A stretch of DNA of 64,000 bases, taken from assembly GCF_018143015.1 (NCBI RefSeq), contig NC_054741.1, positions 37,662,510 through 37,726,509 on the forward strand. The letters are read 5' to 3'. The position numbers and the translations under genes are program-made. Shown in pieces: positions 8,701-61,296 of this stretch. Each line of letters begins with the position of its first letter. The stretch's first letter is position 1. Under the pieces are notes generated by a model. The model worked only from the letters and a program-made list of their open reading frames with translations, searched no databases and was not told the origin of the DNA. This DNA comes from Lytechinus variegatus. Lineage: Eukaryota; Echinodermata; Echinoidea; Temnopleuroida; Toxopneustidae.

Positions 8701-11700
8701 GCTTAGCTGAAAAGTTGGAAGCTTTTATCCACAGTAAGTGGCGCGATTAAAAGGTTTATTCAGCGGCACATTAAATGAAAAAAGAATACCTGCGAGCTGC
8801 GCGGCAGGCGGCAGCAGAAATACGTCAGTGCCTGAGTGTGGGCCGGCCTGCCCGATCGAGCTGCCCCTCGACGATCGCTCTAGATCTAGCTAGCGTAGCG
8901 TAGTTAGCATTCACTGTACCCATCCATTTGTACCCATCGCTATTAACCGTGCTTGATAATGCGTTGCTCATGCTCCTCAATGCATTACTTTTCACATAAA
9001 CGTTTTTGTCAAAGTTGTGACCGCCGCAATTGAGCGCTTATTTCAAATCACGAAGTCACAGAAAACTTCCCTTCCTTCGTTTGGAGATCGTTGCACGGAT
9101 CGCCGCGGAAGTGATACTGAAATTATCGGTCGATTTTCATTATTTTTTACTGTCAATTTGAGGAGCTTGCGTTTGCAGCACATGTGTACCAGCGTATAAT
9201 ACGCAATGATCACTATTGTAATTGGTGATTCTCAAATTGGCTCCGAGTGTTATTGCACAATGCTTTCGAGACCGGATCGTGGTACAAAACTTGATTCTCC
9301 AGAAAAAGATGTGGATTAAATCGGTGATTTCGAAAGTGAATTCACTCTAGCTTAGTGAAAATATGTTTTCCCGAATTGAGCCTGTATTATATAGATCTAG
9401 TGTGGGGATATCATTCGTGTCAAGGTGAATACGTTTGATTGAGAGTGTTATGTTGAATGTTCCACGATCGAATGATTTTTTTTGTTACAGGGAGCCTAGG
9501 CCCTAGGCTAAATTACGGTCCCTTTTTCATGTCGACATTGTCGATGTCGGGATTAATTTTTAATCGACATGTCGACATGGATTTTTGTTCCCGACAACAG
9601 CACTATATTCCCCAGACAGATATTGAACAAACTAGGTCCTTTTATAAAAAAAAAAGTAACATCAGATGTTTTGTACTCCATTTTCGGAAGCCATCTTTGT
9701 GTCGTTGTAGCTTGTCCTTATATATAATTTGACCCTTGAAACTATTAGACACCAAAATCATATATCACCGGTGGATATAATTAAGTATGAGAGAAGTTTG
9801 CGAGACACGACAAAACGGAACGCTGCCATAGCCATGAGGTAAATGCAATTCCATGACTTTTCCATGACTTTTTACAAATATTCCAAATTCCCTGACTTTT
9901 CCCTGACTTTCCAGGACCACAAATTTTTCCAGGATTTTCCAGGTTTTTCCATGACTGTGGGAACCCTGACTGCAGGTACAATCCTACATTGTCTTGTCAT
10001 CCACTATGGAGAATTTCGTAAATACTTTATAGTGGTATTTAACATTCAGGGTTCATAACAATCTTCTTGGACCTCTCGACATCGACAGTGTTCAGAAACA
10101 GAAAGAGAGAAATTTCTCCACTTAGAATAATTCCTAGATTGTCTTGTTACAAGATATAGTGAATTTCATTTGACCCAACTTGTGATCTCAATGCCTTTGT
10201 TTTATCGCATAACCATTTAGTATATTACCAGTTTATCTAATAAGATACATTTAGTGTTTTTTCGATCTTGTAGGGCTCATAACAATCTTCTTGTACCTCT
10301 CAACATTGCTGGTCTTTAGCTATTAAAGCTAGCCAATAATCTAGGTGTACGGTGCAGCACCATCTTTGATGTTACGTTTAACGCATTAAGACACCTCGGA
10401 TGCAAGAGTGGGTGCGAGGCACCTACTGCCTATTCACTAAACCTTAGGTTACAAATATCGGTCAAATATCTTTTTTGCATCAAATCACAGTCCATAAAGA
10501 GAAAACAACTAAAGCAGGAGAGAGTATAGGCAGTACAGCTCCACACTCCACAGCAACTTTTCATACTCTTGCTGCGTCCAACACATCGCTTACGATTAGC
10601 ATAACAGTAAAGATATAGTGGAATCCTCCTCCTATACTATAGGCTGCAGCTAAGTCAGATCAGATCGATCCAAACCAGGACCACAATCCAAAGAAAGGGA
10701 TCATAACTCACCTTCTTATACCTCTCCACATCAACAGTCTCCAGCTGACTGAGGCGGACCAAGTTAGTCCCCACCAGGATCCGGAGCTCGTTACGCTCTT
10801 TTTCCCTCTTCTCCCAATCCCTAGAGTGACCCTGATGCTGCATGCGCACCCAAAGCTTGTTCATCTCGGCAAAGTTCAATAAGATGAAATCAATGGAGTC
10901 TTCAATGTTCCCTCCAGCAGTCTCAGGATTATCACTACAAAAAAAAAGAAAATCAGACATGTTCTCTTTGCATTAGGTTAATAGAGAAATAGAACTGACT
11001 GGTAATAGGAAAAGTTCTCTATCCATCTCAGTCACTCAGAAAACACATTCATTTTACCATATCATCAACAGGCCTCACTTGAAGAGTGGCATCATGAAGT
11101 GCACCTTTCATGGTTGCTAAAAAATCATCAATAACTAAATTTTACTGGAAGAGATGTCAAAGTCAATACAAAATTTTGCTTTGCAACAGATCTGTATGAA
11201 TTTTGGAAGACATTCAATAATTTCAAAACATATTATTATTAGTATTTGCTATTATCACAACATTCAAGTTTAAAAGTAAACAATTCTGTTTTCACACATT
11301 TGCACACTGCGACCCAAGCTATTGAAATCCTTGCACATGGTTGGCTAAAAGCTAGTGAAAGTCACTATTTGTTTCATGAAAACAATCATCTCCTGATCAT
11401 AAATCAAAGATTGGCTGGCCTACCTTTCATCTTTTTCAGTGTCTGGCAGGTAGTTCCTGGTGCACTGCAGGAGATAGTTCCTCAAGAAGAGTCCTCTGAG
11501 TGGGTGTTGAACACCCCTGCACATCTCTACCAAGTCCTTCATGATGTCCTTCCTAGAGCTCTGGTGCGCCTTGATGTAGACGATACCTACTGTGATCAGC
11601 AGATACCTGGAGGAAGCACAGCAATTGCATTAGTTTCAAGGCCCCAGTTATGTGCAATATGGAAAATGGAATGAGTTTCATGGAATTGATTCAGGAAGAA

Positions 11701-19535: not shown

Positions 19536-19669
19536 CAAAAGCTTTGGCAACTCTTTTATTTAAATATTGTAAAGAAATGGATGAAGAGAACAATATGGTA
19601 GGCCTAGCTTAAATTGAGGTTTCCCAGAGCTATCTACCCTTTGCAAAATTGGTGATGCCGAAAAAAATT

Positions 19670-19740
19670 GTATCTGCCGGGAATCGAACCCGGGCCCCCA
19701 GCTTTGAACGCCGGTTCCTTAGCCACTAGACCACAGAGAC
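19670..19740 (-). tRNA. tRNA-like gene, Glu-type body with UCA anticodon loop (possible pseudogene)
   Basis: On the minus strand 71 bases fold as a cloverleaf. The acceptor stem is GTCTCTG with CAGATAC (one mismatch), followed by a D arm GTCTAGTGGCTAAGGAA. The anticodon stem is CCGGC/GCTGG with loop GTTCAAA, then a 4-base variable loop. The T arm is CCGGG-TTCGATT-CCCGG, a perfect B box. A run of seven T follows two bases after the acceptor, as for a Pol III terminator. The body resembles tRNA-Glu, but the loop gives anticodon UCA, which would read UGA. It could be a SINE head or a decayed tRNA gene; no SINE body is seen. Confidence 0.55.
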
Positions 19741-27516: not shown

Positions 27517-27926
27517 GTCTTAGTTACTGAAGCTAATGATTGTTTTCAAAGTGATACATTATTAATCCGTTTTCCTGAACAAAATTAACCATTATGTACT
27601 GAAGTTGATATCACTGAACACTAATTTGTCTGTTATAGGCCCTACATTATGGTCTATATCACCTTCGTCCGGTCGAACAACCTTTGAACAAGTTTAAGCA
27701 ACCGTGAAATCATATTCTGTGTATATATCGATAAGCCAGTAACCGAAGAAAATCATATATAGTCAATTTTGAGCCATTACTGGGTTTATTTGCACTTTAC
27801 GACACCTTTTGTTTTCTGCCTTTATCGGCATGTGCAGTGAATCACGAATGCTAAGGGCATAGTTCATCAGCGAATATAACACCATATTTACCCCATATTA
27901 TTATTTTGCTACATTTGGGAAACAAT

Positions 27927-31100: not shown

Positions 31101-32327
31101 TGTCAGATTTGACAATTTGTCGGATGAAAATATTGATGAAATGCTCCCCTGAATACCGATTTTGTCATATCTCTGAGATGAGATAGAATATGGAGAAAAG
31201 TCAATGTTCAAAATACCGCCCCTGGCTATGAATAGATTGATAGTTTGATACACATGATGTTAGCGACCTTTTTGGTTCATGATTATAATTAAATGCCAAT
31301 TTCGCCCAAGAAAATGATTGATTTGAAACAATAGAGAAATAAATCTAAGCTCAATGCTAAAAGATAATCAAAATCGGAACAAAATAAGAAGTTATGATAT
31401 TTCAAAAGTTCGCTTATTTTAACACAAACCAATTATAACGTATAAGTCAGTGATTACAAATAAGAGATTCGACGATATCACTCTCTATTTCTTTAATCTT
31501 TTTAATGTATGAATTGTACAATATTTTTATTTTTGCAGATTTGACAATAATGGACCCTCTTGATTGAACCACACAAGTTTAAAACAGTGACAAACATAAT
31601 GCAGGGGGATAGGAGAAAAATATTTCATATCATAAAATACAAAATGAGTATAGCGCGTGGGCGATGCTATTGTTTCCCTCATTTGCATACCTACAAGGGT
31701 GTACATATCACTTTGTTTATTCAAGCGAAAAATTAATTGTTATATCTTTCTTATTTTAAATCCGATCTAGATGAAATTTTCTGTGTGCAGCTTGGTTGAC
31801 GTTTCTATTTTTCGTCATTCTGCGTGTTTTGTTGATTTGAACTCCCCCTTTAATATCGGCACCATCACAATTCATGATATCTTTAAAAGTAGGTTCATTT
31901 ATAACGTACATTTACTTACAATCCATTAATATTTGTTTCAGGATATCAAGAAATAATTGATGTCATGCAATACGTCGAGGAAACATTGGGACAAAAACCT
32001 GTCATTATTGATGCAGACGAACTGCTTTCCGAACCTGACCGAATTCTTCCGATGTATTGCCGAGCTGCAGGACTCGAGTACAACCCGAAGATGCTGTCGT
32101 GGGGCAAGACCAATGTGAAAGAATTGAACTGGCACTTTGCAGAGAGTATGCCAGATTTCGATAAAATTGGACTGTTTGATAGTGCTATGAAAAGTTCGAA
32201 GTTTACTCCGTCTGGTAGCAGAACGGAAAAATCATTTGATGAAAGCAGTTGGACAACAGATTTAAGAGAATGCATCGGAGCTGCTTTGCCTCTCTATCAA
32301 AAGCTATTCCAAATGAGATTAAAGTAG
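27927..32327 (+). CDS. P-loop sulfotransferase-like protein, 284 aa, three exons
   Basis: Exons 27927-28185, 29502-29711 and 31942-32327 join (both introns phase 1, GT-AG) into a complete 284-residue protein. The start ATG has A at -3 and G at +4. Residues 22-33 (VFLWSLPRSCTT) form the N-terminal beta-strand and P-loop that in sulfotransferases binds the 5'-phosphosulfate of PAPS. FLIRDPRKTFLS (123-134) matches the 3'-phosphate-binding strand and helix. VEIFWEPF and YGPERR are typical of a group of sulfotransferase-family P-loop proteins sometimes annotated as branched-chain-aminotransferase-like. No signal peptide or membrane segment is seen, so a cytosolic location is likely. The substrate is unknown. 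Intron 1 holds inverted-repeat elements and intron 2 several MITEs. Confidence 0.88.
28246..28665. mobile_element. Inverted-repeat element in the sulfotransferase-like intron 1
   Basis: The left end (GGGACAGTCCAAAGTATTGC then TGTACACACGCGTGACC) and the right end (CACGTGTGTGTACAGCATTA then CATTTGACTGCCCC) are inverted repeats. G/C runs flank both ends, where the base count is uncertain. Confidence 0.65.
29010..29172 (-). mobile_element. Half-copy of the 28246-type element
   Basis: In reverse complement it reads AATCAAATGTATTGC, CATGCGTGACC, TTCAGTTTTGG and CGGGCCGCC. This matches the left arm of the element at 28246-28665. The partner end was not identified. Confidence 0.55.
29176..29202. repeat. 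Perfect 13-bp palindromic hairpin
   Basis: AATTATGCGGATA pairs with TATCCGCATAATT around a single T. Confidence 0.9.
29502..29711 (+). CDS. Sulfotransferase-like exon 2 (residues 87-156)
   Basis: The acceptor is CCCTATAACGCAG. The exon encodes FLEGDFPDAKLLFAKDVTIS through FLIRDPRKTFLSIQRLSD and FDVKKEYGK, then one base before GTGACG. Confidence 0.88.
29854..29993. mobile_element. 'GTTTCATGAAAGGACTTGTC' MITE, copy 2
   Basis: It contains GGACTTGTCGGACGTTTTAT, AGCCAATCAAAAT and GACAACTTGTCGGA, ending GATGAAACGCTCACCT. It lies in the sulfotransferase-like intron 2. Confidence 0.85.
30300..31226. mobile_element. Compound inverted-repeat element, 'GGTATTCTG' type
   Basis: The outer ends GGGGTGGTATTCTGGAAC and, in reverse complement, GGGGCGGTATTTTGAACATT pair. 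TGTCATAAATTTTGTCAT and related motifs recur inside in both orientations. It is interrupted by MITE copy 3 at 30991-31149. There is no coding sequence. Confidence 0.6.
30991..31149. mobile_element. 'GTTTCATGAAAGGACTTGTC' MITE, copy 3 (nested)
   Basis: The ends GGGGGGCGTTTCATGAAAGG and GATGAAATGCTCCCCT pair. An internal duplication of CATTTTATCCGACA makes it longer than the other copies. It sits inside the element at 30300-31226. Confidence 0.85.
31293..31849. mobile_element. TTAA-flanked foldback element 2
   Basis: TTAA lies at both boundaries (31289-31292 and 31850-31853); the length is 557 bp. The arms carry AATCAAAATCGGAACAAAAT then AAGAAGTTATGATATTTC, and on the right TTTCTTATTTTAAATCCGAT. 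The extreme ends are eroded. Confidence 0.7.
31942..32327 (+). CDS. Sulfotransferase-like exon 3 (residues 157-284 and stop)
   Basis: The acceptor is TTGTTTCAG. It encodes GYQEIIDVMQYVEETLGQKP, then VIIDADELLSEPDRILPMYC and ends KLFQMRLK before TAG. Two ATTAAA hexamers at 32364 and 32374 are candidate polyadenylation signals. Confidence 0.9.
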
Positions 32328-36879: not shown

Positions 36880-37480
36880 CAGTATAGATGTGATTGTATA
36901 CCCAAAATAAGTGGATCTATTCAGTAAGTATACTGATGTGATATCCAACATCAATTAAGGGTGTCTTAAAATAAGTGGATCTATTGTATACTAATGTGAT
37001 TGTATACCCAACATCAAATAAGGGTGACTTAAAATAAGTGGATCTATTCAGTACATATACTGATGTGATTGTATACTCAACATCAATTAAGGGTGTCTTA
37101 AAATAATTGGATCATTCAGTAAGTAAAGTGATGTGAATGTATGCCCAACATCAATTAAGGGTGTCTTAAAATAAGTGGATCTATTGTATACTAATGTGAT
37201 TGTATACCCAACATCAAATAAGGGTGACTTAAAATAAGTGGATCTATTCAGTACATATACTGATGTGATTGTATACTCAACATCAATTAAGGGTATCTTA
37301 AAATAAGTGGATCAATTCAGTAAGTAAACTGATGTGATTGTAGGCCTATACCCAACTTAAGTTAAGGGAGTATTGAAATAAATGGATCTATTCAGTAAGT
37401 ATACTGATATGATTCTACACCAACATCATCAGTTAAGGGTGTCTTAAAATAAGTGGATATATTGTATACTAACATGACTA
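36880..37480. repeat. Minisatellite array 1 (unit ~60-70 bp)
   Basis: About nine units are built on TTAAGGGTGTCTTAAAATAA, GTGGATCTATTCAGTA and CTGATGTGATTGTATACCCA. Units differ by small indels. Confidence 0.9.
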
Positions 37481-39904: not shown

Positions 39905-40570
39905 TGAAGTAAATGGATCTATTCAGTATAGATGTGATTGTATACCCAACACCAATTAAGGGTGTCTTAAAATAAGTGGATCTATTCAGTAAGAATTAAG
40001 GGTGTCTTAAAATAAGCGGATCTATTCAGTACATATACTGATGTGATTGTATACTCAACATCAATTAAGGGTGTCTTAAAATAAGTGGATCTATTCAGTA
40101 AGTATACTGATGTGATATCCAACATCAATTAAGGGTGTCTTAAAATAAGTGGATCTATTGTACACTAATGTGATTGTATACCCAACATCAAATAAGGGTG
40201 ACTTAAAATAAGTGGATCTATTCAGTACATATACTGATGTGATTGTATACTCAACATCAATTAAGGGTGTCTTAAAATAATTGGATCATTCAGTAAGTAA
40301 AGTGATGTGAATGTATGCCCAACATCAATTAAGGGTGTCTTAAAATAAGTGGATCTATTGTATACTAATGTGATTGTATACCCAGCATCAAATAAGGGTG
40401 ACTTAAAATAAGTGGATCTATTCAGTACATATACTGATGTGATTGTATACTCAACATCAATTAAGGGTATCTTAAAATAAGTGGATCAATTCAGTAAGTA
40501 AACTGATGTGATTCTACACCAACAGTTAAGGGTGTCTTAAAATAAGTGGATCTATTGTATACTAACATGA
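39905..40570. repeat. Minisatellite array 2 (unit ~60-70 bp)
   Basis: This is the duplicate of the array at 36880-37480, with one extra partial unit near 39990 (AAGAATTAAGGGTGTCTTAA) and other small rearrangements. Confidence 0.9.
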
Positions 40571-42979: not shown

Positions 42980-45128
42980 TTCACATAATTGAATGAATAC
43001 AAATTAAATGTGACAATTTAAAAGATACAATGTAAATAATACAAACAAGACTGGTAATTAAATCATACCTAAGCATGTGATATAGTTCGGTAAAATACAG
43101 GGGCCAGCTATTATAAGCACAGAGGTGCTTGAAGCAATAGCAACCAGGAGAGGGGGCTACATGAAAACCATCATAAATTATATTTGATAAACTGATCGTC
43201 ACGAAATATAAGATTTGTATATATATATATATATACATATTGGTATATAAAAAAAAAATTGGTAAAAAGAAGTGCAAGTGTGTGCATGTGGGTGAGTGCA
43301 GGTGAATTAAATTAGGTATACTTAGAAATAAGAAATTTTTTCAACGAAGCTTTAAACGAATAGAGAGATGTACATTGTTTTATATCATGTGGCAATGCAT
43401 TCCAAATGTCTGGGCCACGGTGGCGTATCGTCTTATGAGCGAGTAATATTCTTGGGTTGGTTAAGTGGAGATCTGTTGAATGCCGTGTTGGATAATTGTG
43501 AATGTCTTTGTTGTAAACAAAAAAATTGCGAAATGGAATCGGGATTGTATTGGATGAAAATTTAAACATAAATATGGCCGTTTGATAAATGTTAATATCT
43601 TCAATTTTCAATGTTTTTAAGTTGTGAAATATTGGATCAGTATGTGCAATGAAATGTGAATGAGTACATATGCGGAGTGCTTTCTTTTGGAGACGGAAAA
43701 TCCTTTCTATTTTTACCTTACTACCATACCCCCATTTTAAGTTGCAGTAAGATAAGTGAGATAAAACGAACGAATTATAAAGCATAAATAATTATTTTTG
43801 GGAGAGATAATATTTTAATCTAAACAGAATTCCTATTCCTCTGGATGCCATCATGCAAATATTGTGAATGTGACTGTTCCAGGTTAAATTTGAGTCAATC
43901 CATACACCTAAAAATTTGGTTTCTTGTTTTTCAATGATAGGGATGTCATCTATGTATATATTAAGGAACATATGTTTAGTTTGAATGTGTTTAAAATACA
44001 TAAAATTTGTTTTGCTTATATTTAGGGAGAGTTTATTAGCTTTAAACCATTTTGATAATTTCTTTAATTCTAAATTAAGTGTCGGGACGAGTATACTTAA
44101 GTCTTTGTGGGAATAGAAGACATTTGTATCGTCTGCAAATAAAACATATGTTAATTCTCGAGATGCATTTACAATATCATTCATATAAATCAAAAATAGC
44201 AAGGGACCTAAAATCGATCCTTGTGGTACTCCACATTTCATAGTACAAATATTGGATGTGTTTGATTTGAAAGAAACATAATGGCGTCGATTACTTAAGT
44301 AATCTTTGAACCAAGTGAAAACAACCCCCCTGATTCCATATCTCTTTAATTTAGAAAGTAAAATGCGGTGATCCATAGTATCAAATGCTTTTGATAAGTC
44401 CATAAAAACCCCAACATTGTGTTCTTTTTTAGAGAGAGAATCAGATATTTTGTCGAATAATTGTAAAATTGCATAATTGGTTGAGTGATTCTCTCTGAAA
44501 CCATATTGATTTGGAAATAATATATTGTTATTGTTCAAAAAGGAATACAATCGTTTGTAAACTACTTTTTCAAGAATTTTAGAGATACTCGGTAATAAAG
44601 ATATTGGTCGGTAGTTGGAAGTGAGACATGGGTCATCTTTCTTATATATTGGTATTATTTTTGCAATCTTAAGTGAATCGGGAACAATGCCATGATACAG
44701 AGAGAGGTTAAAAATATGCATGAGCGGTGAAGCTATAAAGTGAATTATTTGTTTTAATAAACAGACACTTATTCCATCATGCCCTAAAGATTTAGTTGGT
44801 TTCAAAGACCTAACAATTTCTAAGATCTCATGAGTGTTAGTCGGATTAAAAAATAAAGAATGTTCCGGAAAGTCGTTTAAGTATTCAGAAAAATCATTAT
44901 CATTAGATACTATTTTTGAAGCTAAATTTGGACCGATATTATTGAAGAAGTTATTAAAGGCATTAGCAACATCATTTGGGTTTCGCAAGTGTTGACCATT
45001 TTCTACGAAATTGATGTTATCATAGTTTTCTTTTTTCTTACCTAAAATCTCATTTACAGAATTCCATAATGAATTTTTATTATCTTTGTTATTTTCAATT
45101 TCATCAGAAAAGTAAGATTTGCCAGCTT
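42980..45128 (-). mobile_element. LINE (CR1/Jockey-group), 5' truncated, reverse transcriptase present
   Basis: The protein reads from about 45125 down to 43312 in one frame, interrupted by a single TAA at 43792-43794 (YLSQK-stop-LFMLYNS). RT landmarks are present: LKPTKSLGHDGISVCLLKQI (fingers), SNYRPISLLPSISKILEKVV, FMDLSKAFDTMDH, GVPQGSILGPLLFLIYMND and the catalytic YVLFADDTNVFYSH. The tail domain has LSYCNLKWGYGSK and GPDIWNALPHDIKQCTSLYS. No endonuclease domain or ORF1 is present, because the copy is truncated near 45128. The presumed 3' UTR (about 42980-43311) contains CCCCCTCTCCTGGTTGC and a TA microsatellite (43217-43236); its exact end is uncertain. Confidence 0.9.
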
Positions 45129-45403
45129 TTGAAAGACAAACGTAGAATATTGGGTAATATTAAACCTGCACGAGTGTAATTATGTGTCCAACCAATTAGG
45201 GGCAGTACTTTACCCAATGCAGGAAGAATATTGTCCAGTAAGGTTAAAAAGTAAGCAGGAATTTTTTCAGAAGGGGCACAATTTTCATTACACTGGATAG
45301 ATAAAAATGCCAAAAAGAAATTCCTAATGTTGGCTGGACACATAATTACCCTCATGGAGTATTCTTACCCAATAGGTTTTTTTTTAGAATGTAATGCAAT
45401 TAA

Positions 45404-45983: not shown

Positions 45984-46213
45984 TTAAATTATTCAACCAA
46001 AGTGCCCTTATCTTTATTTTGGAGAGTGGGGTTCGCATTGATAATATGGTACAGAACATCCGTGCTGAACTCAAGTAAGCATATTTCAATATGATATTAC
46101 CCGTTGCTACGTCTGGCAAGTCTATGGCTAGATTTCAGGTTGTCGTGTAGAACGTTGGTTTTAAAAGGTAGTCATTAATGAGTGCATTGGTAAACATGTC
46201 TCTTCAGCTGCAC

Positions 46214-46695
46214 CTATGACCGAACAGGAGGTAGGGCACCGAAGTCTCCAACAGTAACACTACCAACACAACTAGTAACCTCTTTTCCCTTGGGCCAGGC
46301 CCTCTTAACCCTACCCTGAGAGGGCGTCCCTCTACACTCTGTTGCTGACGTCAGTGGCGACACCTGCTTTCTTCTGGCATATCTCCCGCCAGGATTGAAA
46401 CGCTCAATGGCTGAATGGAAAATCTTGGAGATACCAGTTCTCTTTGCGTCTCGGACGTCGTTCACCTTCTTCGCTTTACCCGCGAGTATAAATACAAGAA
46501 CAGCCATGAGGATTTCCTCAAGTCTCATAAGACTCTGGAACGCCCACCAAGGCCAGGCTGGTACCACCACCAGGTCAGAGAAGATACCAAACACACCAAA
46601 TGCACCGTATATGTGAGTCGAGCAGCTCGCAACGGCTATCCCACTGCATACCATGATGTTGCGATGAAGACGCATGGCTTTCTTATCTTGACTTC
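46214..46695 (-). CDS. PRRT-like exon with last two TM segments and tail
   Basis: The acceptor is TTTTTATACAG. It reads [20 protein letters not shown], then hydrophobic segments and [20 protein letters not shown], a PRRT-family hallmark. It ends [11 protein letters not shown] before TAG. Confidence 0.82.
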
Positions 46696-49600
46696 CTGTA
46701 TAAAAACCAACAACAACAACAATAACAGTATTAATAATAATAATTGCCTTTAGAATCCTTGTATAGTCAATATTTCACGTGTAATTATATTTTAAGTTAG
46801 TTTTCAAATTTGTTTTCTTTTTTTTCTTTTTTATATGACAAAAATCTACCCAAAAATATTTCTCCGTGGCGTCGATTTATTTGCTTCATCAAGTAAAATT
46901 GAATAATAAAAATCATACTTCATGATAATGCATGGCTGATGCTCATAGCTATGACCTTAAATTGCAATGCAGACCATGTTATTTAGCTTGTCCCTCACAA
47001 TTCGTGTGAATGTGGGATTCTCGATGCATCGTTAAGGAGATCCATCAAGTTTGCCCATGTAGTTATACTGTCTACACGACACATGCGAGTCACCTGCATA
47101 TTGATCTACTAGTTATACCCGAAAGGTAATCAATATCATATCAATGCATTTATAGTATAGAACGACAGAGTTCAGACTGAATATTTTGTGTGGAGTCATC
47201 TTTAATTTAATGGTACGACTGAGTAATAACAAGGTCTGATTATTTGACATACCTAGAACAGACAGAGAAGGGAAAGGTGTATAAACTTCTACAATGGTAG
47301 GGAGATTATTGAACAATGCCGTTTGAATTAGGCCATCCACGGAAAGTGTTTTTATTTGAAATAAACGGTGAAGTGCTTGGTTAGCTCATCAAGTACACAT
47401 TCAAATGATCTATACCAATATCAGTAACCTAGCAACTCCAGTCATTGAGTTAGCTCACCATGTTGGCATTTTAGTTTGCATTACACTCCAAAACTGACTT
47501 CGCTCGAAAATTAAGACTGTAAACGGGTAGGAGTGTGCATGTGCGGTGCATGTGTGAGTTTATTTGTGATTTTGGGTGTATTTGTGTTTGGAGAGCCAAT
47601 TTGAAACAACTGAGAATAGTGTATAAGCATCAAAACAGGAATTGATAATCATATTCCATGGTGATTTAAATGTATGCCTCACTGGTGTGGAGTTTAATAG
47701 AGCAATCAACTAAAAAAAAAGGCACCCGCAATCTATGCACTCTTAAAACAGTTTTCCCAACATCGGGTGAAATGGATACATGTATACTTGCTGGGTAAAA
47801 TAGAACCAAACACTTTGTGAATTTTATGCAATGTTGCCTTGACATTTACACTTTAAATTTGCATTTTGCCCAACATGGGGAAAAATTACACAGCAAACAT
47901 GCTTGTTTCCTTTGTAATATATATATATATATATACATATAAATATTGAAAAATATTCACAACCGAACTCAACTAACAAACATCATTTTGGTAGCTTCAT
48001 AAATATATAATATTGTATACTCGCCTTGCATGTTTTTCTTCTGACTCAAACTAGACTTGAAATTCGCTTTGATGAGTTGACTGACCCTGAAATAACCAAC
48101 CGCTAAAAGTGCACTCCATGTTATGTAGATTATTTGACACATAAGCAGCAACCCTTTCATGTCGATGAAAAATGAAACGAGAACGTCCGTTCCTAGAACT
48201 ACTAAGAAGTGTACACCACAAACTCGTGCAACAGCAGAGAATTTTTGAAAGCGAGGAGGCGCCAAAGAAACCTTTGTTGTATCGATAAGAACGAGTAACA
48301 GTGTGGAAAGAACAGCTGTGAGACAAGGAAACCCAATGGACCACATCATGCGGGAGAGGAGAATTGGTGTATTTTCTCGCGCTCCGTATGGATTTACAAA
48401 GAGTGAGATGGACCGAGTGACCCCAAATATTAAGAGAAGTGTGTTTAAGGTTGCAGTAAGTGACCTGGAGCCCGTACGATGCCTGTCTCCAAAGACACTC
48501 ATGACAACATGACTGGCATACGTCCCAACAAGTATAAACCCGATGGCAAAACCATATATATGTAAGCCCCAAGCCGGTCCAAGCAAGTCAAAAGCTTTAT
48601 TCCAATCTGGTCCAGGCTCGGGCCAAGGCTCTCCTTCTGGTTCTGGTTCAGCGGTTGAATTTGAAAAGGGTTCTGGTTCACCTTCATGTTCAGGTACTGG
48701 TTCACTTTCTCCTTCTGCTGTTGGTTCAGGTTCACTTTCTCCTTCTGCCGTTGGTTCAGGTTCACTTTCTCCCTCTGCTGTTGGTTCTGGTTCACTTTCT
48801 CCTTCTGCAGTTGGTTCAGGTTCACTTTCTCCTTCTGCTGTTGGTTCTGGTTCACTTTCTCCTTCTGCTGTCGGTTCGGGTTCACTTTCTCCTTCTGCTG
48901 TTGGTTCAGGTTCGCTTTCCCCTTCTGCAGTTGGTTCGCTTTCTCCTTCTGCTGTTGGTTCAGGTTCGCTTTCTCCCTCTGCAGTTGGTTCAGGTTCACT
49001 TTCCCCTTCTGCAGTAGGTTCAGGTTCACTTTCTCCTTCTGCCGTTGGTTCGGGTTCACTTTCTCCTTCTGCAGTTGGTTCAGGTTCACTTTCTCCTTCT
49101 GCAGTTGGTTCAGGTTCACTTTCTCCTTCTGCAGTTGGTTCAGGTTCGCTTTCTCCTTCTGCTGTTGGTTCAGGTTCACTTTCTCCTTCTGCAGTTGGTT
49201 CGGGTTCACTTTCTCCTTCTGCAGTTGGTTCAGGTTCACTTTCCCCTTCTGCAGTTGGTTCGGGTTCACTTTCTCCTTCTGCTGTTGGTTCAGGTTCACT
49301 TTCCCCTTCTGCAGTTGGTTCGCTTTCTCCTTCTGCTGTTGGTTCAGGTTCGCTTTCTCCCTCTGCAGTTGGTTCAGGTTCACTTTCCCCTTCTGCAGTA
49401 GGTTCAGGTTCACTTTCTCCTTCTGCCGTTGGTTCGGGTTCACTTTCTCCTTCTGCAGTTGGTTCAGGTTCACTTTCTCCTTCTGCAGTTGGTTCAGGTT
49501 CACTTTCTCCTTCTGCTGTTGGTTCAGGTTCGCTTTCTCCTTCTGCTGTTGGTTCAGGTTCACTTTCTCCTTCTGCTGTTGGTTCGGGTTCACTTTCTCC

Positions 49601-50716
49601 TTCTGCAGTTGGTTCAGGTTCACTTTCCCCTTCTGCAGTTGGTTCGGGTTCACTTTCTCCTTCTGCAGTTGGTTCGGGTTCACTTTCCCCTTCTAAAGTT
49701 GGTTCGGGTTCGCTTTCTCCTTCTGCTGTTGGTTCGGGTTCGCTTTCTCCTTCCGCTGTTGGTTCAGGTTCACTTTCTCCTTCTGCTGTTGGTTCGGGTT
49801 CACTTGCTCCTTCTGCTGTTGGTTCTGGTTCACTTTCTCCTTCTGCTGTTGGTTCAGGTTCACTTTCCCCTTCTGCAGTTGGTTCGCTTTCTCCTTCTGC
49901 TGTTGGTTCAGGTTCGCTTTCTCCCTCTGCAGTTGGTTCTGGTTCACTTTCCCCTTCTGCAGTAGGTTCAGGTTCACTTTCTCCTTCTGCAGTCGGTTCA
50001 GGTTCACTTTCTCCTTCTGCTGTTGGTTCGGGTTCACTTTCTCCTTCTGCTGTTGGTTCTGGTTCACTTTCTCCTTCTGCTGTTGGTTCAGGTTCACTTT
50101 CTCCCTCTGCAGTTGGTTCAGGTTCACTTTCTCCTTCTGCTGTTGGTTCGGGTTCGCTTTCTCCTTCTGCTGTTGGTTCAGGTTCACTTTCTCCTTCTGC
50201 TGTTGGTTCAGGTTCACTTTCTCCTTCTGCAGTTGGTTCAGGTTCACTTTCCCCTTCTGCAGTTGGTTCAGGTTCACTTTCTCCTGCAGTTGGTTCAGGT
50301 TCACTTTCTCCTTCTGCAGTTGGTTCAGGTTCGCTTTCTCCTTCTGCAGTTGGTTCAGGTTCACTTTCTCCTTCTGCAGTTGGTTCAGGTTCACTTTCTC
50401 CTGCAGTTGGTTCGGGTTCACTTTCTCCTTCTGCTGTTGGTTCCGGAGTTCCTCCAGATCTTTTCTCTCGAATTAAATACAGGTTTTCCAGTTCACCTTT
50501 TCTTTCATTCATATTTTTTTGTTTCCAACCGGTGAACATTGCCATCAAATGTGGAACAATGCTGCTATAAACATCATTTTCTTCATGTCTTACTTTCCCT
50601 GTGTCCTCTGCCTCTGTCGTCATTTTCTCTGCAGACTTTAGCGAAAGAGTCTGAACTGAAAAAATGACTGCGAAAAGCAAGATTGGACCTGTTCTTTGAA
50701 TGAAATTCATGTTCAT
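46214..50716 (-). CDS. PRRT3/PRRT4-like multi-pass membrane protein with ~58 acidic decapeptide repeats, 1057 aa
   Basis: Two exons (48025-50716 and 46214-46695) join into 1057 residues. A probable signal peptide (about 1-26) is followed by a short spacer, a furin-type REKR site (83-86) and an array of about 58 [10 protein letters not shown] repeats (90-670). The C-terminal region resembles proline-rich transmembrane proteins 3/4: [42 protein letters not shown] and [19 protein letters not shown] count about seven hydrophobic segments (near 715, 755, 791, 829, 855, 912 and 949). The protein should therefore be a surface or secretory-pathway protein with a very acidic stalk. PRRT3/4 function is poorly known. 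The cytosolic tail is basic ([22 protein letters not shown]). A possible 5' UTR splice acceptor (TTCTTTTCAG) lies upstream at about 50858. A candidate AATAAA (minus strand) is at 46013-46018. Confidence 0.87.
46696..48024 (-). other. Intron of the PRRT-like gene
   Basis: The intron has GC-AG ends and is about 1.33 kb. It contains a TA microsatellite (about 47920-47936). No nested gene was recognised. Confidence 0.7.
48025..50716 (-). CDS. PRRT-like exon with signal peptide, repeat array and TM1-5
   Basis: It starts at the first ATG ([20 protein letters not shown]); a second Met two codons later is equally possible. It ends ...[10 protein letters not shown] plus one base. The frame stays open for 18 more codons, but the phase of the next exon fits a donor CAAG|GCGAGT, that is, a GC-AG intron. 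The nearby GT (GTATAC, three bases later) would put a stop in the next exon. Confidence 0.85.
48707..50449 (-). repeat. Coding 30-bp minisatellite (decapeptide [10 protein letters not shown])
   Basis: About 58 units encode [10 protein letters not shown]. Three units are 24 bp (SEPTAEGE) and a few are 27 bp (SEPEPTAGE), all preserving frame. Only two amino-acid substitutions were noticed in the array (a Leu for Ala near 49695 and an Ala for Glu near 49803). DNA variation is otherwise confined to codon third positions. The array has no stop in several frames, which explains long spurious open frames on both strands. Confidence 0.95.
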
Positions 50717-59224: not shown

Positions 59225-60768
59225 TTGCTGTTTGAGGTGATGAATCTGCTCCCCCATAGGTGCAGGTGCGGCAGAGAGCAGTTGAGATATTAAGTTTAAG
59301 AGGGGGCTGCGTAAGATGTAATAATGTTACGTTTAATATTAGCTTTCAAGGAGTAGATTGTTGAACATGATTTGATATTGTCTGGAAGATTGTTCCAAAT
59401 ATCGGGACCGTAGGGTTTTGTGGATTTGTGGGTTATTAATAATTTGGGGTTAGTGAGGTGGAGGTTTCCAGATATGCGGGTTGGGTAGGAATGGACAGAC
59501 CTGTTGAATCTAAACATATTATTAAAAGACTGAGGAAGTTGATTATTAAAATACTTAAACATAAATATAGCAATTTGAATCTTATTAATATCAAAGATTT
59601 TCAATGTTTTGAGTTTGTGAAACAATGGGTCAGTATGAGCCAATAATGTGAGCCTGTACACATACGGATAGCTCTTTTTTGTAGTTTAAATATAGAGTTT
59701 AGTTTAGAAGAGCCACAGTTTGCCCAAACGATATTGCAGTATGATATATATGGAAGAACTAACGAATTGTATAATAAGAATAAAGTTTTATGAGGAAGAA
59801 GGAATTTTAACTTTGAAATGATTCCAATATTTTTTGAAACGCACATTGTAACATGGTGTATGTGTTGGTTCCAAGACAGAAATTCATCCATAATTACACC
59901 CAAAAATTTTGAATTGGTTTTCTGTTCTAAATTAAGGCGTACCGTCAATGTTAATGTAAATCGGTGTGTTGTTATTATGAGATTGATGTCTGAAATACAT
60001 AAAATGAGTCTTTTTTGTATTTAAAGAAAGTTTGTTGGCCTTAAACCAGTTAGACACCTTGTAAATTTCACGATTTACTACATAGTTTAATGAATTAAGG
60101 TCTTGATGAGAATAAAATATATTTGTATCGTCAGCAAATAAGACAAATGACAAAATAGAGGAGGTTTTTATAATATCATTAATATAGAGTAAAAATAAAA
60201 GAGGACCTAAAATCGAACCCTGTGGAACACCACATTGAACTAAAAGAGAATCAGAGTCATTATTATTAAAAGTGACATATTGCCTTCGATTATTCAAGTA
60301 ATCTTTGAACCATAAGAGAGATTGGCCTCGTATTCCATAATGATTGAGTTTGGAGAGTAAAATATCGTGGTTAAGAGTATCAAATGCTTTACTTAAATCA
60401 CAAAAAATACCAATTACGTGTTCTTTATTTGCTATGGCATTACTTATTTTGTCATAAATTTGAAGTAAAGCCGAGTCTGTTGAATAATATTTCCTAAAAC
60501 CATATTGATTCGAATTTAGAATATTGTGTTTGTTGATAAATTTGTAAAGTCTTGTGTATACTATTTTTTCTAGAATTTTTGATATTGTTGGAAGTAAAGA
60601 GATGGGACGGTAATTACTTATTTCGTGAGGATTGTCTTTCTTAAAAATTAGATTGACTTTAGCTATCTTAAATAAATCTGGGAAAACGCCTTGAGATAAG
60701 GAGTTATTAAATATGTGAGCCAAGGGGCTAGCAAGAGGGTGAATTATTTGCTTAAGTAAATAAGTTTG
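59225..60768 (-). mobile_element. LINE (CR1/Jockey-group), 5' truncated, two frameshifts
   Basis: The RT protein runs from about 60768 to 59296 in three overlapping frames (60723-59932, 59948-59601, 59661-59296), so there are two frameshifts, near 59940 and 59630, that restore the first frame. Motifs: SNYRPISLLPTISKILEKIV, GIFCDLSKAFDTLNHDI, GVPQGSILGPLLFLLYINDI and FVLFADDTNIFYSH, with tail motifs FLGVIMDEFLSWNQHIHH and GPDIWNNLPDNIKS. It is clearly related to the LINE at 42980-45128 but a distinct subfamily or older copy. It is truncated within the fingers domain (TYLLKQIIHPLASPLAH), where it abuts hAT-like sequence. The 3' end is uncertain. Confidence 0.88.
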
Positions 60769-61296
60769 TGGTCAATATACACAAAAATTTCAGCTCGCGC
60801 TTCGCGCTCATATCATTTGGTTAGTCAAATACGTAGGGTCTTAGAGAATGATAATCATGATTACAATGACTTCAAAAAGTGCTTCATGAGTGTGTTTAGA
60901 TATAATTCTAACAAAATCAGCAAAGGATGGCAATAGCATTAGATGACTATGGTGAGATATTTATTCTCTTAATGGATTCTAAAATATAATTCTTAAAATT
61001 TCCTTCTTTAGGGTGAATATATACAAAAATTTTAGCTCGCGCTTCGCGCTCGCATTGTTTGTTTAGCGAGACAGTTAAGTATCATGATTACCAAACAATT
61101 CGCTTATAATGTCAATTTTTAGCCGTCAATATAAAAAATTTTCAGCTCGCACTTCGCGCTCGCATTATTTCATCAGTGAGACACATATCCGTTTAATGGC
61201 ACTGCATGTCCTTAAAATATCTCTATTAGGTCAAGTGACCCGATTTTTTTGCTGGTGCCCCCCCCCCCCAATGCCGTGACCCACGGTACGCCACTG
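60769..61296. mobile_element. hAT-like element D, right part only
   Basis: It aligns in order with 52556-53095 of element C: the GCTCGCGCTTCGCGCTC units, AGATGACTATGGTGAGATAT, TTGTTTGTTTAGCGAGACAG, then the terminus CCGTGACCCACGGTACGCCA then CTG. The left side is replaced by the LINE ending at 60768. Confidence 0.8.

What the first reader, a model, noticed from the sequence alone, without database searches (positions are those of the whole stretch)
48707..50449. Furin-type site followed by ~58 acidic decapeptides on a PRRT-like membrane protein
The ectodomain of this seven-segment PRRT3/4-like protein is almost entirely [10 protein letters not shown] repeated about 58 times, giving roughly four Glu per ten residues and well over 200 negative charges. 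An R-E-K-R motif (residues 83-86), a consensus for furin-like proteases, sits directly before the first repeat. If cleaved, the repeat array becomes the new N terminus of the mature surface protein. The Pro/Thr/Ser/Glu composition suggests an extended, possibly O-glycosylated, cation-binding stalk. I know of no PRRT protein described with such an array.
Basis: partly seen in the sequence, partly recalled or inferred. Interest (0 to 1): 0.75.

Follow-up and report, generated by a model that had tools for sequence, protein, structure and literature searches.

The report
Acidic repeat stalk on seven-pass protein
A surface protein of an animal genome, probably threaded seven times through the membrane, carries a long, strongly negative outer tail made of 58 near-identical ten-residue repeats, which appears to have grown from a single motif that a related gene still has as one copy just after its signal peptide.

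Summary
On the minus strand, aa 90-670 (48707-50449) are 58 [14 protein letters not shown] units (51 exact) with 229 Glu in 581 residues; REKR is at aa 83-86. A second exon (46695-46214) behind a GC-AG intron supplies segments 6 and 7, giving a predicted 1,057-aa protein with signal peptide and seven N-out segments. The 53 full-length units are 21 DNA versions but 3 peptides. The array is in the reading frame, peptide-constrained, and has duplicated in blocks (exact 218-nt copy).

Seven paralogues were found in the genome. Acidic tails are a family trait: four of the seven have Glu-Pro-rich ones. Paralogue L004 has a likely upstream exon where a signal peptide is followed almost at once by [13 protein letters not shown] able to encode PEPTAEGE occurs at 53 places in 869.6 Mb: 52 in this array, one in that exon. 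So the array expanded an old N-terminal motif, and cleavage at REKR would leave [12 protein letters not shown], close to L004's likely mature N terminus. That supports, without proving, convertase processing.

Membership in PRRT3/4 could not be tested; no Pfam (above cut-off) or PDB match was found. Processing, glycosylation, cation binding and expression are untested. New variant of a known kind, moderate interest.

The parts
48025..50716 (-). Coding exon 1 (ATG at 50716; last exon base 48025): signal peptide, pro-region, array, tail, membrane segments 1-5
   Evidence: one open frame; splice site inferred from sequence and alignment
50642..50716 (-). Predicted signal peptide, about aa 1-25 (hydrophobic core [11 protein letters not shown]); exact cleavage point judged by the -3/-1 rule (recalled), not by a predictor
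   Evidence: hydropathy; sequence
50459..50641 (-). Pro-region, about aa 26-86, no Cys; the first 88 aa as query matched nothing else in the genome at E <= 10
50459..50470 (-). REKR, aa 83-86, furin-type RX[K/R]R motif, followed by SGG
48707..50449 (-). Array aa 90-670: leading TPEPTAEGE plus 58 SEP-starting acidic units
48915..49132 (-). 218-nt block repeated exactly at 49299-49516 (offset 384): block duplication inside the array
48581..48706 (-). Non-repeated Glu/Pro tail aa 671-712 with the one sequon N686-S-T; shares STAEPEP with the tail of paralogue L006
48025..48580 (-). Membrane segments 1-5 with loops (hydropathy cores aa 723-741, 756-774, 793-811, 833-851, 855-873)
46696..48024 (-). 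Intron 1,329 nt, GC-AG (AAG|GCGAGT ... TTTATACAG|GAAGTCAAG), phase 1, inferred
46214..46695 (-). Coding exon 2: membrane segments 6-7 and basic C-tail, stop TAG; two columns in it (W253, R261 of the aligned sequence) invariant in all 8 aligned members
46013..46018 (-). First AATAAA/ATTAAA in the 213 nt scanned downstream of the stop (possible poly(A) signal)
48543..50570 (+). Antisense open frame (675 aa, [10 protein letters not shown] repeats): judged a by-product of the repeat, not a gene; its protein was not searched against any library

Best explanation
The locus is a working protein-coding gene for a seven-pass surface protein with GPCR-like topology (N outside, C inside). Four of its seven relatives in the same genome have acidic Glu-Pro-rich N-terminal tails; here one motif of that tail, [10 protein letters not shown], has multiplied to 58 copies by unequal exchange while purifying selection kept the peptide. 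The chain most likely enters the secretory pathway by its signal peptide, a furin/PC-type convertase removes a pro-region of about 61 residues after REKR, and the mature protein begins [12 protein letters not shown] and displays a flexible, extended polyanionic stalk (about 240 net negative charges) in front of the seven-segment body. The stalk probably acts as a charged spacer or brush that sets reach, keeps neighbours away or gathers cations and basic ligands. Shown: open frame, array, in-frame and mostly silent variation, paralogues, shared motif. Inferred: splicing from sequence and alignment, topology from hydropathy and loop charges, processing from motif and paralogue. Only proposed: the role of the stalk.
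For: Array and frame. Signal peptide, seven further hydrophobic segments, K+R in putative inside loops 3, 4, 9 and C-tail 19 against outside loops 2, 1, 0. Seven paralogues, the same eight loci again with the L004 domain, seven of the eight with the L005 domain, L009 missed. Exon 2 aligns with their segments 6-7. Acidic EP-rich tails in 4 of 7 paralogues (E+P 0.30-0.48; the other three 0.12-0.21, L009 seen in part), 0.44 in this gene's own tail (L006 and L007 are near-identical). Paralogue L004, likely exon 1 on C3: [40 protein letters not shown]; codons for PEPTAEGE differ from the first unit here at 5 of 8, all silently. DNA for PEPTAEGE: 53 places genome-wide, 52 here and 1 in that exon; reversed control 0. 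An 8-aa shared string is reached by 58 of 100,000 shuffles of the first 50 residues of L004's mature tail. No acceptor-like site (at least 11 of 15 pyrimidines before YAG) inside the array or pro-region. The membrane part occurs once in the genome as DNA. Mouse Prrt3, if related, is N- and O-glycosylated in brain (PMC10501376, passages).
Against: No transcript, proteomic or orthologue data. L004 lacks both the pro-region and REKR, so cleavage is argued only from where the shared motif starts. Signal peptidase in L004 would probably cut two residues before SG (after LSLA, by the recalled -3/-1 rule), so the mature ends would be similar, not identical. The tree does not group this gene with L004 specifically. 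Silent variation is equally compatible with an antisense frame, and tandem copies are not independent. Three acceptor-like sites (first exon bases 50667, 50655, 50650) lie inside the signal-peptide stretch and one at 48315 in the membrane part, and donor-like sites lie at 50594 and 50497, so transcripts lacking the signal peptide, or damaged ones, cannot be excluded by sequence.
Confidence: 0.6

Rival explanations
1. Neutral coding minisatellite: the gene is real and expressed, but the array is a passively tolerated expansion of a disordered tail; copy number has no function and REKR is incidental.
For: Exact block copies show slippage or unequal exchange; no other array of this unit in the genome at E <= 0.001; paralogue L004 has one unit, three of seven paralogues show no acidic tail (L009 seen in part).
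Against: Silent variation strongly dominates; homogenisation could mimic this only partly, since 21 DNA types persist while 3 peptides do. The unit is kept at protein level in a diverged paralogue.
Confidence: 0.3
2. No processing: REKR is not cut, and the pro-region is a retained N-terminal cap or the true functional domain, with the array as a linker. (This can be true together with most of the best explanation.)
For: RX[K/R]R appears in 2.7% of shuffles of this basic stretch; no orthologue to test conservation of the site; L004 has no such site.
Against: Position directly before the motif that probably begins the mature chain of L004; the first 88 aa have no other match in the genome at E <= 10 and no Pfam match at E <= 1.
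Confidence: 0.3
3. The array is intronic, antisense or otherwise untranslated, or the apparent gene is an assembly artefact.
For: The antisense strand is also open with a constant peptide; donor-like AAA|GTAAGA at 50594 and acceptor-like sites in the signal-peptide stretch and at 48315. Long near-identical arrays can be mis-sized in assemblies (general knowledge).
Against: Signal peptide, array, tail and homologous membrane domain share one frame; no acceptor with at least 11 of 15 pyrimidines in the array or pro-region (weaker sites not examined); unit homologous to a likely coding exon elsewhere.
Confidence: 0.08

Closest known systems
PRRT3/PRRT4 (proline-rich transmembrane proteins of vertebrates)
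   Same: Mouse Prrt3 is experimentally N- and O-glycosylated (PMC10501376, passages seen); human PRRT3 appears in a soluble-ADAM10 substrate table (PMC10229884, passage) and mouse Prrt3 in a PPT1 substrate table (PMC9004782, passage).
   Different: No sequence comparison with a vertebrate PRRT was possible; the recalled Pfam accession is not in the library. No decapeptide array was seen described in the searches made: 0 papers with the repeat strings, 1 paper for sea urchin plus proline-rich transmembrane protein, which concerns PRRT1 in a clam.
Paralogues in the same genome, above all L004 (C3:68154361)
   Same: Membrane domain (24-36% identity); signal peptide, then one PEPTAEGE and an EP-rich tail in L004; L006, L007, L008 with EP-rich tails, L008 with EPEPTAE twice.
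   Different: No array seen in any; no pro-region and no REKR before the tail in L004; L003, L005 and the visible part of L009 lack acidic tails.
EP procyclins (Trypan_PARP) of trypanosomes
   Same: Glu-Pro-rich acidic surface repeats; the array scores 59.5 bits to the model.
   Different: Below the curated cut-off of 100 bits; procyclins are GPI-anchored coat proteins (PMC2637416, abstract and passages), this is a predicted seven-pass protein. Most likely convergent composition.
Protease-processed seven-pass receptors (protease-activated receptors, adhesion GPCRs; recalled)
   Same: Proteolysis would create a new N terminus on an N-out seven-pass protein.
   Different: No sequence match to a GPCR family above cut-off (best 7tm_3, E 0.039, in one paralogue); convertase cleavage would occur during secretion.

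Membership tests
PRRT3/PRRT4 | Sequence match of the membrane domain to PRRT3/4 | not testable with these tools
   No vertebrate reference in reach; accession PF25987 (recalled) not in the Pfam copy; no family match for the 363-aa membrane part at E <= 1
PRRT3/PRRT4 | Signal peptide and proline-rich ectodomain before a multi-pass domain (recalled definition) | tested here: met
   (prediction level)
PRRT3/PRRT4 | Glycosylated ectodomain | not testable with these tools
   Seen for mouse Prrt3 in print; here one sequon N686 and 60 Thr/58 Ser in the array, no predictor available
G protein-coupled receptors | Seven segments, N outside, C inside | tested here: met
G protein-coupled receptors | Match to a known GPCR family | tested here: not met
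   Pfam: 1 of 7 aligned members reaches 7tm_3, E 0.039, under cut-off; PDB profile search 0 hits at E <= 10
Furin/proprotein convertase substrates | RX[K/R]R in a lumenal, accessible stretch | tested here: met
   REKR aa 83-86 after the predicted signal peptide, no Cys before aa 798; accessibility inferred
Furin/proprotein convertase substrates | Actual cleavage | not testable with these tools
   Only indirect: shared motif lies at the start of the predicted mature chain of L004
Procyclins | Score above Pfam cut-off and GPI anchoring | tested here: not met
   59.5 of 100 bits; seven-segment domain instead
MSCRAMM adhesins (SdrC, ClfA) | Score above NCBIfam cut-off | tested here: not met
   82.9 against 1700 and 82.3 against 1150 bits, matched in the repeats

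The most novel reading that the evidence does not exclude
The peptide [10 protein letters not shown] is itself a functional N-terminal signal (tethered ligand or recognition tag) of a seven-pass receptor family, exposed by signal peptidase in one paralogue and by a convertase in this one, where it has been amplified 58-fold into a multivalent polyanionic display whose copy number tunes receptor reach or binding.
Probability: 0.15. Interest if true: 0.75.

Novelty: new variant of a known kind. Interest (0 to 1): 0.45.

Why it matters
It gives a clean case of a surface protein's ectodomain growing from a single ancestral motif to 58 copies, with a single copy still readable in a paralogue at nearly the same place relative to the predicted mature N terminus. 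It also yields a sharp, cheap prediction (mature N terminus at Ser87) for a seven-pass family with no match above cut-off in the Pfam copy used. If the family is PRRT3/4, the papers listed here (16 of 16, 25 of 129) showed no function for the protein in their titles and abstract openings.

Tried and rejected
GPCR or other known fold for the membrane domain: no Pfam match above cut-off and no PDB match; NCBIfam matches lay only in the repeats. Trypan_PARP and MSCRAMM matches rejected as composition, below cut-offs. Antisense gene on the + strand: rejected as by-product, although its peptide is equally constant. Splicing out of the array: no suitable acceptor in the array or pro-region by a simple consensus scan, but acceptor-like sites exist in the signal-peptide stretch and at 48315. 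Another copy of the array or of the N-terminal 88 aa elsewhere: none at E <= 0.001 and E <= 10; one search did not show the single unit of L004, so it does not see short copies. A generic EP query found nothing at E <= 1e-5 (150 of 202 candidates scored), which by the tool's own note shows little. Literature: eight searches and passages of six papers; none of what was seen described this array; of the 25 papers listed many titles and abstract openings concern PRRT3-AS1 or other lncRNAs. PMC4422726 (passages) treats PRRT4 as a neighbour gene of leptin. The species was not established: 869.6 Mb in 33 contigs fits a sea urchin by recall only. Upstream exons for L003, L006, L008 and L009 were looked for only in the stretches already held (about 7-9 kb each); none was recognised, and three simple-repeat (Met/Asp-rich) ORFs flagged upstream of L009 were dismissed by eye. 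Upstream sides of L005 and L007 were not searched beyond their first loci.
Full report
What was checked. The finding describes a minus-strand ORF with an acidic decapeptide array at 48707-50449. Tandem Repeats Finder gives a 30-nt array at 48699-50443 with 59.0 copies. Translation of 47969-50716 gives 915 aa. The array is aa 90-670: 58 units beginning with SEP, of which 51 are [10 protein letters not shown], after a first partial unit TPEPTAEGE; Glu is 229 of 581 residues. REKR is aa 83-86.

The whole gene. The ORF ends soon after the fifth hydrophobic segment. A donor AAG|GCGAGT and an acceptor TTTATACAG|GAAGTC join exon 1 (last base 48025) to exon 2 (46695-46214) across a 1,329-nt GC-AG intron, in phase; this splice is inferred, no transcript was available. 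The spliced protein has 1,057 aa. Exon 2 aligns with segments 6 and 7 of the seven paralogues (L008 and L009 break off within segment 7), with two invariant columns. Hydropathy shows a signal-like first segment and seven more; K+R counts in the loops (3, 4, 9 and a C-tail with 19 for the putative inner side; 2, 1, 0 for the outer) put the N terminus outside. The stretch aa 87-712, from REKR to about ten residues before the first hydropathy core, is 626 aa with 239 Glu, 2 Asp and 1 Lys; the first Cys of the protein is aa 798.

Is the array constrained? The 53 full-length units are 21 different DNA sequences but 3 peptides; of 76 minority letters 73 fall at third codon positions; 10 of 13 distinct variants are synonymous where 20 of 90 possible single changes would be (P = 4e-5). 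The five shorter units (three of 24 nt, two of 27) keep the frame. Two cautions. The copies are not independent, and one antisense frame shares the third positions and is just as constant (3 peptides), so the test says 'coding-like' without choosing the strand; the strand follows from the signal peptide and the homologous membrane domain. An exact 218-nt block recurs 384 nt away, with further exact blocks of 113 and 77 nt at other offsets, so the array has duplicated in blocks.

Relatives. No eukaryotic genome other than the window's own could be searched, so paralogues stand in for orthologues. With the first 203 aa of the membrane part as query, seven other loci match at E 2e-26 to 9e-7, 24-36% identity; the L004 domain recovers the same eight loci and the L005 domain seven of the eight, missing L009. 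Four of the seven (L004, L006, L007, L008) have Glu/Pro-rich stretches before the first segment (E+P fraction 0.48, 0.30, 0.30, 0.40; this gene's own non-repeated tail 0.44); L003, L005 and the visible part of L009 do not (0.12, 0.15, 0.21). L006 and L007 are near-identical copies and should count as one. L006 shares a 7-aa string, STAEPEP, with this gene's tail (reached by 1 of 20,000 shuffles) and L008 shares a 7-aa string, EPEPTAE, with the array (5 of 20,000). A tree of the eight membrane domains does not resolve the position of this gene relative to L004.

The key comparison. L004's exon begins at a splice acceptor, so 48.7 kb of its upstream side was fetched and ORFs of at least 30 aa on the gene's strand were filtered for a signal-like start or a Glu/Pro/Asp-rich stretch. 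One ORF passed: [53 protein letters not shown], followed by a GT donor in phase 0, about 6 kb upstream. It contains the repeat peptide once; by the recalled -3/-1 rule the signal peptide would be cut after LSLA, two residues before SG and four before PEPTAEGE. Five of its eight PEPTAEGE codons differ from the first unit of the window gene, all silently, so the peptide rather than the DNA has been kept. A search of the whole genome for any uninterrupted DNA that could encode PEPTAEGE found 53 places, 52 in this array and one in this exon, with none for the reversed control. The shuffle test limited to composition is weaker (58 of 100,000). The L004 splice is inferred, not seen in a transcript.

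What this says about REKR. In the window gene a pro-region of about 61 residues separates the signal peptide from the motif; cleavage after REKR would leave [12 protein letters not shown] at the N terminus, close to the [12 protein letters not shown] expected in L004. This makes convertase processing more likely than the motif alone (RX[K/R]R in 2.7% of shuffles of the region), but it is comparative inference from one paralogue, and L004 has neither pro-region nor REKR.

Could the array be spliced out? A simple consensus scan found donor-like sites at 50594 and 50497 but no acceptor-like site in the pro-region or array; acceptor-like sites lie in the signal-peptide stretch (50667, 50655, 50650) and in the membrane part (48315). 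A transcript lacking the signal peptide is therefore conceivable; clean removal of the array by sites of this strength is not.

Function. The best-supported reading is a seven-pass surface protein with a long disordered polyanionic stalk. With 0.31-0.36 nm per residue (recalled values) 581 residues span about 180-210 nm if fully extended. Spacer, brush or cation-gathering roles follow from composition only. Each unit has a Pro-Thr step that could carry an O-glycan, and mouse Prrt3 is N- and O-glycosylated in brain (PMC10501376, passages), but relatedness to Prrt3 was not tested.

Known kinds. The low-complexity matches to procyclin and staphylococcal adhesin models are below cut-offs. No paper in the held library contains the three repeat strings searched. 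I file it as a new variant of a known kind: an orphan seven-pass gene whose family motif has been greatly expanded.

Verdict. Real, very probably coding, and with a supported account of its origin; processing and role open. Interest 0.45.

Noticed in passing
L006 (C2:24576125-24576700) and L007 (C2:31740037-31740612): Two nearly identical members of the seven-pass family about 7.2 Mb apart on one contig, with different C-terminal ends: recent duplication or assembly duplicate.
   Followed up: partly
L008 (C14:19331175): Another family member with its own small acidic repeat (EPEPTAEPGMFG twice) and a third inner loop about 200 residues longer than in the others.
   Followed up: partly
48024-46696 (-): GC-AG intron between segments 5 and 6 of this gene; L003-L007 have both regions in one open frame.
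   Followed up: partly
50650-50667 (-): Acceptor-like sites inside the signal-peptide coding stretch; an alternative first exon joined here would drop the signal peptide.
   Followed up: no
10658-10972 (-): Exon-sized ORF matching Vps35 (Pfam, E 7e-36).
   Followed up: no
43795-45159 (-) and 59932-60771 (-): Reverse-transcriptase ORFs of LINE-like elements; the first matches RVT_1 (E 8e-42), the second by eye only.
   Followed up: no
31905-32324 (+): Weak sulfotransferase match (E 0.005, below cut-off); ORFs at 27855 and 29396, without a Pfam match, may be exons of the same gene.
   Followed up: no
36904-37463 and 39954-40565: Two tandem arrays about 2.5 kb apart with similar 69/200-nt units.
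   Followed up: no
449-2336: Tandem arrays with 163- and 192-nt units.
   Followed up: no
19669-19740 (-): tRNA by Rfam (45.9 bits).
   Followed up: no
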